Assembly (NCBI RefSeq): GCF_020687745.1
Contig: NZ_JAJEWK010000010.1
Span: 248,001 to 312,000, forward strand
Direction of reading: 5' to 3'
Length of the DNA stretch: 64,000 nucleotides
Origin: Chryseobacterium sp. MFBS3-17
Lineage (GTDB): Bacteria; Bacteroidota; Bacteroidia; Flavobacteriales; Weeksellaceae
The position numbers and the translations under genes were made by a program. Below are positions 26,953 through 34,163 of the stretch, in pieces. Every line of letters begins with the position of its first letter. Positions within the stretch are counted from its first letter, which is position 1. The notes under the pieces were generated by a model. It searched no databases, was not told the DNA's origin, and saw nothing but the letters and a program-made list of their open reading frames with translations.

Positions 26953-27468
26953 TTATCGATACAACTTTTCTATAACAGCTTGACTGTTTTTTTTATAGAT
27001 TACGTAATATAACCAATGCTTTCCATCGTCATCATTTTTAGAAAAACGACTTTCTTTATTATTCTGAAAATTATTCCAATCATTGGTAACTTCTTTCACT
27101 AATCCATCACTAAAAATATCACAATGACCAGAATTTGCATTGCCGGTTTTTGTGTTATAAGTAAACATACATTTTCTTAAATCCCTGCCTCTTACGGAAT
27201 TGAAAATAATAAAATCAGTTTCTTCAATGTTGTTCAATGAGTCTAATGACTTTTGGGTGTAATCTGAAAATTCAAAAAAGAAAGCATTAATATCTTTACA
27301 AGCTTTACTTTTATTTTCTAAAAGGTTAAAGTCATCAATTTTTAAACATTTACTATAACTTTCATTATATTCATTTTCAAAGTATTTCCTTGTTTCTTGA
27401 CTAGCGCAAGAGTGGGTTAAGAAGAACGCTAAAAAACAGCATAAAACGCGTTGAAGAAATATTTGCAT
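26953..27468 (-). CDS. Putative exported immunity protein for Rhs module 1
   Basis: A 171-residue protein with an N-terminal hydrophobic stretch and a Cys after LTHS (about residue 21), fitting a lipoprotein or signal peptide. The mature part is polar, with few hydrophobic segments, and I recognise no family. It begins inside the 3' end of the Rhs gene (68-bp overlap in another frame), which implies coupled expression. By position directly after a toxin-like C terminus it is the expected immunity gene. Low GC compared with flanking core genes agrees with transfer. Confidence 0.62.
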   Translation of the reverse strand: MQIFLQRVLCCFLAFFLTHSCASQETRKYFENEYNESYSKCLKIDDFNLLENKSKACKDINAFFFEFSDYTQKSLDSLNNIEETDFIIFNSVRGRDLRKCMFTYNTKTGNANSGHCDIFSDGLVKEVTNDWNNFQNNKESRFSKNDDDGKHWLYYVIYKKNSQAVIEKLYR

Positions 27469-29239
27469 CTTTATTATAATTAAAACGGTTAGAGAGATTA
27501 TACTTCGAACTATTTTCTTTAAATGAACTCAGCATTAAGTTTAAAGTTTTTCCATCTCCGTATTTTAAATTCATCTTCTCATTTTTATCAAAATATCTAC
27601 TGTTTCCATGTTTATCAGCAACAAGAGATAAATCATCCCATCCAGTTCCTGTATTTGTATATTTATTTCTCAAGGAAAGTCCCCATTCACTTCTCAATTT
27701 ATTTTCAACATGGGTAGCAAATATTTCTCCAGTTGTAGCAGGAGGGTTTACATAAGTAAGCCAATTTAAAGAAATACTGGAAGGATCCATCCCATGAGCC
27801 ATCTCATGACCTAAGTTAATAAATGTAGGACTAATGCTAGAAGTATCTCCCATGTCAAGGTAAGCCGTCCCACTCTGATAATAACTTCCATCGGTTGTTT
27901 CCATGATTTTGATATTATTTTGAGCATTATCAAAATGATTTATCATTCCACCTCCAGTTCCACCTCCCGTTTCAAGCATAAACAGTGACGCGACTACACT
28001 TACAGCAAAATCTGATAATTGTACGCTTTGATCAATATTTACCCATTCTCCCTCTACTTGATGCTGTGTTGCTCCATTATGGTATCTATACTCCTTATCG
28101 CCATCCCAAAATGTAATCCACATTCCGTTAGGATCGATAAACATGATTGGATTGTTTCCTGCGTAATTGTAAGGAGACATTTCTGTGTAAAGTTCTGCAA
28201 CAGGATCCACAACTCCCCACCGTCCGATATCCGCCATGTACATTCTTGCTCCGTAGTCGTACATTCCCGTTTCTTGGAGTTCCTTACCGTTGTACTTATA
28301 ATTCTGGTAAGATCCCACACCAAAAACGGCTTCTTCTTCTTCGTTTCTCACAAAGCTCATCCCGAAAGGGTAATAGTCATTACTATCTGTTACCTGCGGG
28401 TTTTGGTAGCCATCATCTTTATAGCTTAGCCGCACATTTCCCAGGTGGTCTTTGTATTGGTAAATATATTCATTATTTTTGAAATCATAAAAGCCTTCGG
28501 CAGTAGGGAAAAACATCAGCTCATCGGTCAGGTTTTGCTCATTGACAAAACTGATAAATGCTTCCATCTCATAGGCTTGCCCGCCTGCTTCTGAAAACAA
28601 TTCCCAAAGCTCCTCATCTCCCACAGAAGAGGTGTAATGAAAACCATCTATATATTCCGTGGAAGTAGAAAACATTTGTCCACCCGGGCCTGTAGATACA
28701 TAATTCTTTTTCAGCTTTGTTCCATCTGCCCGGTAAAGGTAGTTCATCCCGATGCTGGAGCCGTCAATGTCAAAATTCACCGGCAGGTTCAGATGGTTGT
28801 ACTGTATCTCCTCTATTGATTTATCCAGAAGTGCGGTCATATTTCCGTTATCATCGTAGGAAATAACGTTCCCCCCGCCTTCATACCCTGTGGGGTTTCC
28901 GCTGTAATCGGTAATGGAGATTAATCTGTTACCGGTGTAGGTGTAAGACAGATCATCAATCAACTCGGGATAGTTGTTATAAAATGAGGGGGCATTTCTT
29001 TTCAGGCTGGTAATATTCCCATTGAGGTCATAGAATATATCTTCATTGTAGAATTCAGTAGAAGGAAGGGTCACATTGGGCTCAGAGAAGTATGCATTGG
29101 TAAGCCGGTTCAGAGAGTCGTAAGAGTAGCTATACCGTCTGATGGTGGGTTCATTATAGCCTGTGGCTTTTGCCCAGTCTACCTCGGCAATATTTCCGTT
29201 AAACCGTGCAGTGGCTTCTTCATGAGGTTGGTATTTCAT
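27401..29239 (-). CDS. Rhs module 1: truncated core with HEMAH metallopeptidase-like C-terminal domain
   Basis: A 612-residue product from the ATG at 29239; an in-frame stop lies four codons upstream, so the usual long N-terminal part of an Rhs protein is absent. Residues 1-372 are YD-repeat and Rhs core sequence, with DHLGNVR, YPFGM, GMYDYGARMYM and NNPIMFIDPNG. After this the sequence changes to a variable domain. It contains HEMAH at 478-482 (HExxH zinc motif), and about 20 residues later GEIFATHVENKLR. The downstream Glu/Asn/Arg block recalls M91/NleD-like Rhs peptidases, so E505 or E512 may be the third zinc ligand. Toxin function is inferred. Confidence 0.75.
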   Translation of the reverse strand: MKYQPHEEATARFNGNIAEVDWAKATGYNEPTIRRYSYSYDSLNRLTNAYFSEPNVTLPSTEFYNEDIFYDLNGNITSLKRNAPSFYNNYPELIDDLSYTYTGNRLISITDYSGNPTGYEGGGNVISYDDNGNMTALLDKSIEEIQYNHLNLPVNFDIDGSSIGMNYLYRADGTKLKKNYVSTGPGGQMFSTSTEYIDGFHYTSSVGDEELWELFSEAGGQAYEMEAFISFVNEQNLTDELMFFPTAEGFYDFKNNEYIYQYKDHLGNVRLSYKDDGYQNPQVTDSNDYYPFGMSFVRNEEEEAVFGVGSYQNYKYNGKELQETGMYDYGARMYMADIGRWGVVDPVAELYTEMSPYNYAGNNPIMFIDPNGMWITFWDGDKEYRYHNGATQHQVEGEWVNIDQSVQLSDFAVSVVASLFMLETGGGTGGGMINHFDNAQNNIKIMETTDGSYYQSGTAYLDMGDTSSISPTFINLGHEMAHGMDPSSISLNWLTYVNPPATTGEIFATHVENKLRSEWGLSLRNKYTNTGTGWDDLSLVADKHGNSRYFDKNEKMNLKYGDGKTLNLMLSSFKENSSKYNLSNRFNYNKDANISSTRFMLFFSVLLNPLLR

Positions 29240-29488: not shown

Positions 29489-29950
29489 TTAGAGGGAGCT
29501 GGGAGCCTTGTAACACAACCCGATCAAATTTGGAGTACTGTATATATTATCCATGCCTCTATCTCTGCATATCTCTGTTTGCTCATCAAATTTAATACAA
29601 TCTGGCACAAACTCTAAAGGACTTCCTGTTTTTACGTTTTTAGGTATATAGTCTTCAGGTTTGATTATTCTTTCGAGATTAAAGTAACTATACTGATCTC
29701 CTTGTTTAATTATTTCACATTTAGTTGTTAATTCTTTTTTTGAAATAACTTTATAATTCTTCTCTTTAAAATTTAAATAAATCAGATAGTAATTGTTAAT
29801 TGAATCAATTTTATACACGGTATAATTTTCCTTGTTGCTTATTTCTGTATTTACAATTGCATTGTTGGCAATACAACTAACCTGCAATCCCAAGAAACAA
29901 AAAATAAATAAATGAGGAATGTACTTTTTAATATGGTGTAAATGTTCCAT
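29489..29950 (-). CDS. Putative lipoprotein immunity protein for Rhs module 2
   Basis: A 153-residue protein with a hydrophobic N-terminal helix and lipobox LQVSC (Cys near 26), so probably anchored in a membrane facing the periplasm. The mature part is rich in Lys, Tyr and Asn. I recognise no family. It overlaps the Rhs module 2 stop by 23 bp and is the only gene between that module and the XRE fragment, which supports an immunity role. Confidence 0.62.
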   Translation of the reverse strand: MEHLHHIKKYIPHLFIFCFLGLQVSCIANNAIVNTEISNKENYTVYKIDSINNYYLIYLNFKEKNYKVISKKELTTKCEIIKQGDQYSYFNLERIIKPEDYIPKNVKTGSPLEFVPDCIKFDEQTEICRDRGMDNIYSTPNLIGLCYKAPSSL

Positions 29951-31436
29951 CTGGATATTTTGTAAAAATTATTCTACCACTTGACATAAATTGAGCTTTT
30001 TGAACATTTGTACCCGAAGTCCCCGTAGTAAGTCCTGTTGGGTTTTTAAAAATTAATCCATCATTTGTCATGTAGTAAATTTCAAGACTTCCTCCTGGTT
30101 GTTTAACGGCTGCGTTATGGGCTCGAGAATAAACACTTGTGGGATCTAGTGCATCACTTTGGGTAGCAGGTCCGACAAAATTACTTTCAGTTCTAGATAT
30201 CAAGCTTCCTTCGTATGCCTCTGAAACTTCATGCAATACACCTTCTCCTGGCTTGCTGGCAAAATCACCCATTCTTCCCAATATTTCTGGATTAATTGCT
30301 TGTTCCGCAGTAACAATTCCTGTGGAAGAGTCTAATGAGTTACCTAAAAAAGCTCCTCCATTATGAGTAGCACCACTACTAGTAGTAAGTGTGTTTTCAG
30401 CCGCCACATTAACTAAAACCGAATGATCATTAATAATTTTTGCCACTTCTGATGCATTACCCGATAAAGCTCCTGTAGTGTTTTGGGTGTAAGTAACATT
30501 TCCTGTCGTAGCGTCTCGTGAAAGTGTAATATCAGTACCCGCAGATTTTTGTAATTCCGCTAGTGCCTTATCGGAAGCTCCACCATTTATCCTAATATCA
30601 GCAACACCACGACCATCCGGATCTATAAATCTAATAGGATTATTTACTACGTAATTATATGGACTATGACGTCTGTAAATTTCCGCCAGTGGATCCACCA
30701 CACCCCACCTTCCAATATCTGGCATATAGAATCTCGCACCATAGTCATACATTCCACTGTCTGATTGATATTCCTTGGAGTTGTATTGGTATTGGTAGCT
30801 TCTGTTTCCTGCATATCCTGATTCGTTTACATAATGGCTAAGCCCAAATGGATAGTACTGATTGTCTTTAATGATCTCTGCGCCGCCATTACCGGAATAA
30901 TACGTAATTCGTACATTTCCCAGGTGGTCTTTATACTGGTAAATGTACGTATTATTTTCAAAATTGTAGTAGCCTTCCGCGGTGGGTACAAATTGTAAAC
31001 CTTGGGGAAATATTGAACCGGGGTCACCACCTGTGGTGTGTGAGTACTGAAAGCCATCCAGATAGTCGGTGGTTTCTATAGTGTCATATCCTTGTAATTG
31101 TCCGGTAAAAAACAAATGTTTCTTTTGCAACTTAGTACCATCTGCACGATAGGTATAATCTGTGGTTTTATTAACCCCATAGCTTCTGCCACCACTGTCT
31201 CCACCACCTCTCATTACAAAATCATTGAAAATGAGGTGAGTTGGCAAATTCAGAAAATTGTAACTGATATTCAGAATTCCTTTATCCTCATGTTGGGTCA
31301 TATTGCCATTGGCATCATAGGTCATTGGGATTCCGGAGGTATCAGGATAGCCCTGGTAATTGGCAGATGCATCTGTAACCGTGTTCAGCCTGTTGCCGGT
31401 GTAGGTGTAGGAAAGATTGTCTATCTGTTCTGCCAT
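29928..31436 (-). CDS. Rhs module 2: truncated core with HEVSEAY-containing C-terminal domain
   Basis: A 502-residue product from the ATG at 31436, with a GTG two codons earlier as alternative. The N terminus begins abruptly inside YD-repeat sequence (NLSYTYTGNRLNTV). The Rhs core (YKDHLGNVR, YYPFGL, GMYDYGARFYM, NNPIRFIDPDG) ends near residue 276. The remaining 226 residues differ from both other modules. They contain VLHEVSEAYEG at about 400-410, a His-Glu cluster resembling but not equal to HExxH, and SRAHNAAVKQPGG downstream. I cannot name the family; a hydrolase using this His/Glu pair is an inference. Confidence 0.72.
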   Translation of the reverse strand: MAEQIDNLSYTYTGNRLNTVTDASANYQGYPDTSGIPMTYDANGNMTQHEDKGILNISYNFLNLPTHLIFNDFVMRGGGDSGGRSYGVNKTTDYTYRADGTKLQKKHLFFTGQLQGYDTIETTDYLDGFQYSHTTGGDPGSIFPQGLQFVPTAEGYYNFENNTYIYQYKDHLGNVRITYYSGNGGAEIIKDNQYYPFGLSHYVNESGYAGNRSYQYQYNSKEYQSDSGMYDYGARFYMPDIGRWGVVDPLAEIYRRHSPYNYVVNNPIRFIDPDGRGVADIRINGGASDKALAELQKSAGTDITLSRDATTGNVTYTQNTTGALSGNASEVAKIINDHSVLVNVAAENTLTTSSGATHNGGAFLGNSLDSSTGIVTAEQAINPEILGRMGDFASKPGEGVLHEVSEAYEGSLISRTESNFVGPATQSDALDPTSVYSRAHNAAVKQPGGSLEIYYMTNDGLIFKNPTGLTTGTSGTNVQKAQFMSSGRIIFTKYPDGTFTPY

Positions 31437-31487: not shown

Positions 31488-31916
31488 CTACCAACAATCT
31501 TTAAAAAAAGAATAATTAGCTCTTAAATCTCTTGCAAGATTTCCTTCTTCATCGTAATAATACTCACTTTTACCATCTTTTTTTATAATCCAAGCTTTTA
31601 AACTAAAATCCGCATAAACTGTATCGTTGCCTTTCGAGTTAGGTATTAAAAAACAATAGTTATGATCTTTAAATGATTTGGAATTAGACTTAAGTAGATT
31701 ACTAACTCTAGCCCTAATATCAATTGCATGCTGGTACATATAAGCATGCTCATCTTCGTACGCCCAAAACATTTTTTCCCCATAATCAGCAGCATGATCT
31801 CTTGAATACATAAATTTAATAACTTTTGTATCAGTATTTTGTGAATCAGCAGACTTTGTATTAAATATAATGATTGGTAAAATAGTGACAAGAATTGCGG
31901 TAATCAGTTTTTTCAT
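31488..31916 (-). CDS. Putative exported immunity protein for Rhs module 3
   Basis: A 142-residue protein with a clear Sec signal peptide (MKKLITAILVTILPIIIF, cleavage near residue 22-25) and no lipobox. The mature part has YEDEHAYMYQHAIDIRARV and ends FFKDCW. I recognise no family. The ATG lies one base after the stop of Rhs module 3, the tightest spacing in the array, so the two genes are expected to be translated together. Confidence 0.62.
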   Translation of the reverse strand: MKKLITAILVTILPIIIFNTKSADSQNTDTKVIKFMYSRDHAADYGEKMFWAYEDEHAYMYQHAIDIRARVSNLLKSNSKSFKDHNYCFLIPNSKGNDTVYADFSLKAWIIKKDGKSEYYYDEEGNLARDLRANYSFFKDCW

Positions 31917-31917
31917 T

Positions 31918-33069
31918 TTACTTGGATTTTATAATATTTGAGGTAGGACTAGTTACAGGAACGGGATATGCACGGTGATTCTTCCGTATAATGATATTTG
32001 GATAGACTTTTTTCAGATTCATATCTATTTGTTGAGATATACCATTTACTCTTTTCTCTTCAGCATTTCTAAAATATGGTGAACCTTTTCGAGTAGAAAG
32101 ATCGTTCTGTCTCACCGCATGTTCACTAGGATTGGTAGCATGACCATAAGCATGGCCAATTTCATGGCCTAATGCATGAAGTGGAGTTGCAACTTTTAAA
32201 CCTTTTAAATCGTTCTTTTCATATTTTGCTTTCAAATCCTCATAATTTAAATCATTTTTATCATCAAACAATACTCCCATTCTAGATTTAAAATTAAGAG
32301 CTCCAATATGTGTTGATGGTTCAAATTTTCCATCCTTTGTTTTTCCCCAACCGAAATCAGTAAATGTCTTATCGTTATGATTATCGAATATAGAAAGTTC
32401 CCTTGGGTTTTCAATTAAACTTTGAATTAGATTAACATCCTTACCATCGATATTTATATTTGATGCTTCATAAAGAGCATCTAAAACTTTATAAGTATCT
32501 GTCAAATAATCTGGCATATTTAATTTCGAATAGTCTCTGTCCTTTTGATATGTATAATCAGAACTATGCTGATTATTAGTCCCATAATAAATTCGAATAT
32601 AATTTCCATCAGGATCGATATAACGTATAGGATTATTTATGGCATAATTATACCCGCTATTGTTTGTGTATTTTTCAGCATACGCATCTACCACGCCCCA
32701 TCTTCCAATATCCGGCATATAGAACCTTGCGCCATAATCATACATTCCCGTCTCTTGCAGTTCTTTGCCATTGTACTTATAATTCTGGTAAGATCCCACA
32801 CCAAAAACGGCTTCTTCTTCTTCGTTTCTTATAAAATTCATCCCGAAAGGATAAAAATCATTACTATCTGTTACCTGCGGGTTTTGGTAGCCATCATCTT
32901 TATAGCTTAGCCGCACCGAGCTTCGCTCCCAATCTTCGCCCAAAGTTGCACTTTGTTCTCGCTTGTCAAAATGGTCTTTGCCTCTCTGTTTTTTATTATT
33001 TTTAATGGAATCGGCGAACCTCCTTCGTCGGTTTGTATTGGTAAATATATTCATTATTTTTGAAATCAT
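31918..33069 (-). CDS. Rhs module 3: frameshifted core with HEIGH metallopeptidase-like C-terminal domain
   Basis: A 383-residue open frame. Only residues 52 onward are genuine Rhs core (VRLSYKDDG, YPFGM, GMYDYGARFYM, NNPIRYIDPDG, ending near 155). The first 51 residues come from inserted DNA and the out-of-frame FKNNEYIYQY segment; homology to the core continues in the shifted frame to about 33105. The variable domain (156-383) carries LGHEIGHAYGH at 301-310, a strong HExxH motif with an extra His, then NAEEKRVNG near 335-343, which may supply the third ligand. Whether this ORF is still expressed is unknown. Confidence 0.66.
   Translation of the reverse strand: MISKIMNIFTNTNRRRRFADSIKNNKKQRGKDHFDKREQSATLGEDWERSSVRLSYKDDGYQNPQVTDSNDFYPFGMNFIRNEEEEAVFGVGSYQNYKYNGKELQETGMYDYGARFYMPDIGRWGVVDAYAEKYTNNSGYNYAINNPIRYIDPDGNYIRIYYGTNNQHSSDYTYQKDRDYSKLNMPDYLTDTYKVLDALYEASNINIDGKDVNLIQSLIENPRELSIFDNHNDKTFTDFGWGKTKDGKFEPSTHIGALNFKSRMGVLFDDKNDLNYEDLKAKYEKNDLKGLKVATPLHALGHEIGHAYGHATNPSEHAVRQNDLSTRKGSPYFRNAEEKRVNGISQQIDMNLKKVYPNIIIRKNHRAYPVPVTSPTSNIIKSK
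32917..33031. repeat. Composite short insertions inside Rhs module 3 core
   Basis: Compared with module 1 (28440-28460), 115 bases stand in place of 15, shifting the frame by one. One part has CAAAGTTGCACTTTG, a hairpin like those at 26552 and 29438. The other lies between two TTTG copies at 32977 and 33032 and contains a GGCGAACCTCCTTCG stretch. They look like small non-coding mobile or REP-like sequences. Confidence 0.55.
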
Positions 33070-33138
33070 AAAAGCCTTCGGCGGTAGGGAAAAACTGCAG
33101 AATCAGGATTTTGCAGTACTCTAAAAACGTTCAGAATC

Positions 33139-33158: not shown

Positions 33159-34163
33159 TTACGACACCAGCAAACTGCAGCCGCGGATGTCTGAATGATC
33201 AATGCGCCCCACCACCGAAAAAGCCGGATGTATGCTGTGCGCAAGGTCTGTGTGATGCAAAATTCCCAGATCCTGAGTGGCAATAAATGCGCAAGAGTGG
33301 AGATTGGCGAGGTCTATGATGTTAATGGCACCCGTACGGTCCGCCGGCATATAAGCAAACGGATCCTCCGTGTTGCGGATCAATATCCGCATCCAATCGG
33401 GCGAATAGTAGATATTTTCGCCGGTAGAATAGGCCTGAGACAGCAATTCAGTCATGGAATATTCAGAAAAAATGCGTTCACTGCGGAAGCCTTTTTGCAG
33501 TATACTGAGCAGCTGGTCTTTCGTCATTTCCTCTTTCCTTCCTTTCATGCCGCCGGTTTCTATAATGGTCAGTTGTGGATTCTGCGGAAGTTCCACATGG
33601 TTTTCTGTACAGTAATCCAGGAAATCCAACAGGGCAAATGACACGCCGAAGAGCAACACTTTCTGATGCCGCAGCGAGGCGAGCAAATCCCGCAATTCCC
33701 CATGGTTGTATAAATAGTAACCGTTCTCCGGTTTCCCGGATTTTTTCATCAGAAAATCTACCATATAGATGAGGGAAGCGTGCGGATTCTCGGAATAATT
33801 GGGCAGCAAGCCCAGAAAAACATAATCTTCCGGCGGACCTATAAACTGTGAAAAACTCTTCCCGATGCTTTGTTCATATAAATCAAAATCTGCAAGATAA
33901 TGCCGGGATCGTACCGTCTGTGTCGTTCCGGAGCTTTGAAAAAAATGCTTCGGACTGAATTTCTCATCCAGAACTTGATGGTTTTTAAACATTTCAATGG
34001 GCAGAAACGGAATTTTTTCAATGGAATCCATCTTCATTGGATCTGTGTGGAGGTAATCACAAAATCTGCGGTAAATTTCCACATGCTGGTACTGATACCT
34101 GAACACCGCAAGGCATTGTTCCCGGAATGCTGCTTGGGATGATATGTTAAAAATGTTTTTCAA
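33159..34163 (-). CDS. LuxE-family acyl-protein synthetase-like protein
   Basis: A 334-residue protein of the LuxE/PaaK-like adenylate-forming superfamily. Starts at TTG (34163). The motif FFQSSGTTQTVRS (about 93-105) is the LuxE/AMP-binding phosphate loop, and ETGGMKGRKEEM (about 206-217) matches the second conserved block; EYSMTELLSQAY is the E-T/S-E motif. LuxE activates fatty acids, but no luxC or luxD is nearby. In Bacteroidota such genes are often linked to lipid or surface-glycan genes; here lpxH is the upstream neighbour. Confidence 0.8.
   Translation of the reverse strand: MKNIFNISSQAAFREQCLAVFRYQYQHVEIYRRFCDYLHTDPMKMDSIEKIPFLPIEMFKNHQVLDEKFSPKHFFQSSGTTQTVRSRHYLADFDLYEQSIGKSFSQFIGPPEDYVFLGLLPNYSENPHASLIYMVDFLMKKSGKPENGYYLYNHGELRDLLASLRHQKVLLFGVSFALLDFLDYCTENHVELPQNPQLTIIETGGMKGRKEEMTKDQLLSILQKGFRSERIFSEYSMTELLSQAYSTGENIYYSPDWMRILIRNTEDPFAYMPADRTGAINIIDLANLHSCAFIATQDLGILHHTDLAHSIHPAFSVVGRIDHSDIRGCSLLVS

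What the first reader, a model, noticed from the sequence alone, without database searches (positions are those of the whole stretch)
31918..32600. Module 3 tip: HEIGHAYGH zincin-like domain with immunity gene one base away
HEIGHAYGH holds HExxH plus an extra His four residues on; EEKRVNG follows near residue 337. Only one base separates the toxin stop from the immunity ATG, typical of co-translation.
Basis: partly seen in the sequence, partly recalled or inferred. Interest (0 to 1): 0.58.

Follow-up and report, generated by a model that had tools for sequence, protein, structure and literature searches.

The report
Orphan Rhs protease toxin with immunity
A bacterial gene fragment encodes a zinc-protease toxin tip, with the predicted fold of the botulinum protease domain, sitting next to a gene that looks like its dedicated antidote; together they look like a weapon between bacteria rather than against animals.

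Summary
In detail: window 31918-33069 (-) encodes a 5'-truncated Rhs core plus a 228-aa tip with HEIGHAYGH and EEKRVNG; the next gene (31488-31916) starts one base after the stop. In 14 aligned tips HExxH and the EE pair are invariant, but the "extra His" is His in only 6 of 14, so it is unlikely to bind zinc; one Glu of the EE pair is the better third ligand. All 14 tips match Pfam M91 (NleD/HopH1 type; best E 5.8e-10), the window's own copy only weakly (14.6 bits; cut-off 25). A confident model (pLDDT 90.9) resembles clostridial-neurotoxin light chains (Z about 11), a kinship already published for M91. The neighbour gene is a real partner: 15 of 15 intact full-length toxin matches in 320 same-family genomes have it immediately downstream, and the pair co-diverges. 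Its product looks exported, a lipoprotein in most relatives. Best reading: an orphan, probably unarmed, M91-like antibacterial Rhs toxin-immunity module. The toxin type is known; the exported immunity family matched no Pfam model above cut-off, and published M91 toxins have mostly been read as anti-eukaryotic. Substrate and activity are untested.

The parts
31918..33069 (-). Toxin ORF, 383 aa: truncated Rhs core plus M91-like tip (module 3)
31921..32604 (-). Toxin tip, 228 aa after DPDG; predicted gluzincin domain
32140..32166 (-). HEIGHAYGH: invariant HExxH; last His not conserved (6 of 14)
32056..32061 (-). Invariant Glu-Glu pair at the start of the next long helix; likely holds the third zinc ligand
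32605..32853 (-). RHS repeat-associated core (TIGR03696, residues 73-155)
31488..31916 (-). Immunity gene, 142 aa, signal-like hydrophobic N-terminus, no lipobox Cys in this copy
32917..33031 (-). Non-Rhs stretch that interrupts the Rhs core; part of it is repeated elsewhere in the genome
33032..33100 (-). Remnant of upstream Rhs core (96% identical to 28451-28519); the next gene upstream (33159-34163) is not Rhs

Best explanation
It is a displaced (orphan) Rhs toxin-immunity module. The tip is a zinc endopeptidase of the gluzincin type, a divergent branch joined to the M91/HopH1 group, with a fold like clostridial-neurotoxin light chains. Steps inferred: in strains where the tip is on a full-length Rhs protein, a Sec signal exports it, the tip is delivered to neighbouring bacteria, zinc held by the two His of HExxH and a Glu of the EE pair activates water, and a protein of the envelope or one met on entry is cut; the exported neighbour protein blocks the tip outside the cytoplasm of kin. 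In this genome the module has lost its 5' part, so it most likely serves as an immunity reserve and a tip available for recombination. Shown: motif and partner conservation, predicted fold, truncation, purifying selection between the window copy and its nearest relative. Not shown: activity, substrate, protection, expression, delivery.
For: Tip relatives in 15 of 320 same-family genomes by single sequence and 22 of 320 by profile. HExxH, EE, R165, Q192, R207 invariant in 14 of 14 aligned tips. PF14891 matched by 14 of 14, best 5.8e-10. Model pLDDT 90.9, pTM 0.89, HExxH in one helix and EE at the start of the next long helix; Foldseek best E 2.9e-4 and VIA Z 11.1 (rmsd 4.3, 176 aligned) to neurotoxin light chains. 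Immunity match directly downstream of 15 of 15 intact full-length toxin matches and of 22 of 27 of all toxin matches, fragments included; immunity genes remain beside decayed toxins. Toxin-immunity distance correlation 0.88 against 0.67 for toxin-core. dN/dS 0.13 (tip) and 0.26 (immunity) between the window and L009. Full-length parents of 1163-1210 aa with signal-like N-termini in L045, L046, L047.
Against: The window's own tip scores only 14.6 bits against M91 (cut-off 25) and gave no match when scanned as the whole ORF. A position three residues after R207, part of a motif described for this group, is conserved in 12 of 14 and the window copy is one of the two exceptions, so this copy may differ in activity. 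Exported immunity is common in these arrays anyway: 21 of 21 HExxH tips but also 9 of 11 other tips (p=0.11), so it does not by itself point to an envelope substrate. The immunity model was poor (pLDDT 57). Two stand-alone relatives (L055, L056) have no neighbour that the immunity profile recognises.
Confidence: 0.7

Rival explanations
1. The tip is an anti-eukaryotic M91 effector, as M91 proteins are usually read, and the neighbour is a chaperone or accessory factor rather than an immunity protein.
For: Tpe2 (M91) was predicted anti-eukaryotic without immunity (PMC9846239 passages); Tox-HopH1 is grouped with anti-eukaryotic effectors in Salmonella (PMC12994826 passages); two stand-alone relatives lack the neighbour.
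Against: 15 of 15 intact full-length matches keep the neighbour, which has its own signal-like N-terminus, shows higher dN/dS than the toxin in 7 of 7 pairs tested and remains beside decayed toxins and alone; a chaperone should not outlive its client.
Confidence: 0.15
2. A dead fragment: the module is a non-expressed relic of an Rhs gene, with no present function in this genome.
For: The 5' part is missing and replaced by unrelated sequence; no Rhs N-terminus beyond a 55-56 aa stretch at 50% identity and no VipB match in the genome.
Against: Tip and immunity frames are intact with dN/dS 0.13 and 0.26 against L009, although that average covers time before the truncation; orphan modules are a known reserve for recombination in Rhs systems (recalled).
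Confidence: 0.3
3. Metzincin-like or other zincin that uses the extra His as third ligand.
For: HEIGHAYGH has the extra His in the window copy.
Against: Position is His in 6 of 14, otherwise Tyr, Phe, Asp, Lys or Leu; spacing is not that of a metzincin (recalled); EE is invariant.
Confidence: 0.03

Closest known systems
Tox-HopH1 / peptidase M91 (PF14891; NleD, HopH1, XopG, Tpe2)
   Same: HExxH plus downstream Glu; Pfam M91 matches in all 14 tips; Tox-HopH1 is known in Bacteroidetes and with RHS repeats (PMC3482391 passages).
   Different: Window copy is below the Pfam cut-off; it has a conserved exported partner, whereas the 2012 table lists no immunity family for Tox-HopH1.
Clostridial neurotoxin light chains (M27) and the BoNT-like proteins of Chryseobacterium piperi
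   Same: Predicted fold; M91-M27 kinship was published (PMC6367388 passages).
   Different: 228 aa against roughly 400; no M27 model among the matches of the 14 tips; Rhs delivery instead of a heavy chain; immunity gene; no evidence of a SNARE substrate.
PAAR-RHS-M91 effector of Salmonella SPI-19 with a one-TM neighbour
   Same: RHS protein with M91 tip and candidate immunity downstream (PMC8867033 passages).
   Different: T6SS-linked and PAAR-bearing; neighbour is a 110-aa TM protein.
Tpe-Tpi (VgrG2b C-ter / PA0261)
   Same: Gluzincin with third-ligand Glu, acts in the periplasm, immunity exported as soluble, lipoprotein or TM form (PMC6899460 passages).
   Different: DUF4157-type domain on VgrG via T6SS; no match of our 14 tips to that domain.

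Membership tests
Peptidase M91 / Tox-HopH1 | HExxH zinc motif | tested here: met
   14 of 14
Peptidase M91 / Tox-HopH1 | Downstream Glu as third ligand | tested here: met
   EE invariant 14 of 14, 32-45 residues after the first His; ligand role inferred
Peptidase M91 / Tox-HopH1 | Profile score above the curated cut-off, window copy | tested here: not met
   14.6 bits, cut-off 25; so filed only as M91-like, joined through relatives
Peptidase M91 / Tox-HopH1 | Profile score above the cut-off, relatives in the same alignment | tested here: met
   L010 32.0, L014 40.2, L016 38.8 bits: 3 of the 7 A1 members scanned singly; the other 3 of that call's 10 proteins (L055, L056, L057) are below it or unmatched
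Peptidase M91 / Tox-HopH1 | RxxY-type motif | tested here: inconclusive
   Arg 14 of 14, Tyr 12 of 14, window copy an exception
Clostridial neurotoxin light chain (M27) | Fold | tested here: met
   Predicted model: Z 11.1, rmsd 4.3, 176 aligned
Clostridial neurotoxin light chain (M27) | Sequence family match | tested here: not met
   No M27 model among the matches of 14 members
Rhs polymorphic toxin-immunity module | RHS core followed by a variable tip | tested here: met
   TIGR03696 55.3 bits, cut-off 32.5; tips change after DPDG
Rhs polymorphic toxin-immunity module | Cognate immunity gene directly downstream | tested here: met
   15 of 15 intact full-length matches
Rhs polymorphic toxin-immunity module | N-terminal export part in this copy | tested here: not met
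   ORF lacks it; none found in the genome: orphan module
Rhs polymorphic toxin-immunity module | Toxicity neutralised by the partner | not testable with these tools
   needs bench work
Tpe-Tpi | T6SS delivery | tested here: inconclusive
   no VipB (PF05943) match in the own genome; a divergent sheath could be missed
Metzincin | Third His ligand | tested here: not met
   His in 6 of 14

The most novel reading that the evidence does not exclude
Neurotoxin-light-chain-fold (M91-like) proteases include an interbacterial lineage in this bacterial family whose dedicated exported immunity proteins are natural protein inhibitors of the fold; that would favour an origin of the fold's toxic use in warfare between bacteria, before its use on animals and plants.
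Probability: 0.35. Interest if true: 0.75.

Novelty: new variant of a known kind. Interest (0 to 1): 0.5.

Why it matters
M91 proteases have mostly been read as anti-eukaryotic effectors, in one case explicitly without immunity (Tpe2; Salmonella Tox-HopH1). A branch with a strictly conserved, co-diverging, exported partner argues for an antibacterial use and gives a concrete toxin-inhibitor pair with which to find the bacterial substrate and to ask where this protease fold came from.

Tried and rejected
Metzincin reading: dropped, extra His not conserved. Exported immunity as proof of an envelope target: dropped after the control (9 of 11 non-HExxH tips also have exported partners; the sample is of arrays near this family). 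Immunity fold: model too poor to search. A search of genome contigs by short peptide patterns gave 63 stretches, none confirmed. No match in plasmids or phages by tblastn. PDB by sequence: three hits at E 1.6-1.7 for the single tip, none for the profile. Module 1 tip against A1 gave an 18-column match around HExxH only, 32% probability, so no close kinship between modules 1 and 3 is claimed. Rfam on the loci of the repeated scar piece: nothing. Phylum-wide draw: 2 of 395 genomes, one of them the window's own; order-wide draw 10 of 395. Not-in-print claims rest only on searches, 70 of an open-licence library; no paper joining an M91/HopH1 tip to this immunity family was noticed in the listings, of which I opened six papers by passages.

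Full report
What is there. On the minus strand, ORF 31918-33069 (383 aa) is followed by ORF 31488-31916 (142 aa) with one base between them. Residues 73-155 of the first are an RHS repeat-associated core (TIGR03696, 55.3 bits). After DPDG comes a 228-aa tip with HEIGHAYGH and EEKRVNG. The ORF's first 50 or so residues are not Rhs: a stretch at 32917-33031 interrupts the core, and beyond it a 69-nt Rhs remnant (33032-33100) is 96% identical to 28451-28519 of module 1. So module 3 is a 5'-truncated orphan. The own genome (99.66% complete) gave only 55-56 aa matches at 50% identity to a full-length Rhs N-terminal part and no VipB.

Conservation. With the tip alone, 15 of 320 same-family genomes match. 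From its 16 matches I left out two fragments with stops (L017, L022) and aligned 14 tips, the window's included. HExxH, EE (tip 182-183), R165, Q192 and R207 are invariant in 14 of 14; the extra His is His in 6 of 14. A shuffled tip carries HExxH in 306 of 20000 cases and HExxH with EE in 7 of 20000. A profile of the 14 finds the family in 22 of 320 same-family genomes, in 10 of 395 drawn from the order (several weak) and in 2 of 395 drawn from the phylum, one being the window's own. None of the 3 other genomes of the genus listed has it; the nearest copy (79% identity) is in another genus (G145). The tip is AT-rich (GC 0.31, window 0.44). This fits horizontal spread.

Family. Pfam M91 (PF14891) matches 14 of 14 tips, best 5.8e-10; the window tip alone has 14.6 bits against a cut-off of 25. 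Of 10 proteins scanned singly, 3 pass the cut-off (L010, L014, L016). I therefore call the window tip M91-like, joined to M91 through relatives. The model (pLDDT 90.9, pTM 0.89) has HExxH in helix 141-157 and EE at the start of helix 181-197, the gluzincin arrangement. Foldseek and VIA-align place it next to clostridial-neurotoxin light chains (E 2.9e-4; Z 11.1, rmsd 4.3, 176 aligned). That M91 and these light chains are related was published by Mansfield et al. 2019 (PMC6367388, passages, outline), who list HExxH, a third-ligand Glu, a further Glu and an RxxY motif. In our set the Arg is invariant and the Tyr is present in 12 of 14, the window copy being an exception; that this Arg is the equivalent of the published one is inference. 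No SNARE substrate is implied.

The partner. In all 14 aligned pairs a partner gene starts -17 to +9 bases from the toxin stop. By profile, 15 of 15 intact full-length toxin matches and 22 of 27 of all toxin matches have an immunity match directly downstream; 22 of 42 immunity matches lie next to a toxin match, the others being alone, partial or weak. A divergent tip (L057) has a partner found by local profile search (E 7e-9), not counted above. Immunity genes stand beside decayed toxins and alone, as expected for immunity. Toxin and partner distances correlate (0.88) more than toxin and core (0.67). Both are under purifying selection, the partner less strongly in 7 of 7 pairs. Nine or ten of 14 partners pass a strict lipobox pattern and 12 of 14 have an SC pair at the end of a hydrophobic N-terminus by eye; the window copy and L009 have a signal-like N-terminus without that Cys. 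No Pfam family passes its cut-off for the window partner, and the few weak matches of the 14 are each to one member; NCBIfam gave none for the window copy.

Mechanism. Inferred: exported Rhs protein, delivery to neighbours, zinc-dependent cleavage of a protein outside or at entry to the cytoplasm, block by the exported partner. The closest worked-out analogue is Tpe-Tpi (VgrG2b/PA0261; PMC6899460, passages), a different domain family. A control weakens the envelope argument: in the arrays read here 21 of 21 HExxH tips but also 9 of 11 others have exported partners, so export of immunity may reflect the delivery route.

What is new. Tox-HopH1 tips, in Bacteroidetes and with RHS repeats, were known, with no immunity family listed (PMC3482391, passages). 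A Salmonella PAAR-RHS-M91 with a one-TM neighbour was proposed (PMC8867033, passages). Tpe2 and Salmonella Tox-HopH1 were read as anti-eukaryotic (PMC9846239, PMC12994826; passages). The conserved exported partner family is, as far as these searches show, undescribed. Verdict: a new variant of a known kind, real, moderately interesting, with activity untested.

Noticed in passing
27404-28120 (-): Module 1 tip is itself a Pfam M91 match above cut-off (26.7 bits) with HEMAHG; close kinship to the module 3 tip was not supported by profile comparison.
   Followed up: partly
29931-30590 (-): Module 2 tip has HEVSE and AHN; it is 82% identical in L048 directly after an M91-like module, as in the window, with a weaker relative in L049 (39% over 64 aa). 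No Pfam match; may be another metal-dependent tip.
   Followed up: partly
L049 (14 kb): Array of Rhs tips in another genus that holds relatives of all three window modules' tips.
   Followed up: partly
32977-33021: A 45-bp piece of the scar is repeated at 91% identity in three other places of the genome, at least two near contig ends; no Rfam match.
   Followed up: partly
L055 2163-2786 and L056 2301-2951: Stand-alone relatives of the tip in another bacterial family, without Rhs core or recognised immunity gene.
   Followed up: partly
G000 C6 end (L050) and C7 start (L051): Two Rhs fragments end at contig edges with the same core sequence up to DPDG, so their tips are missing from the assembly.
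   Followed up: no
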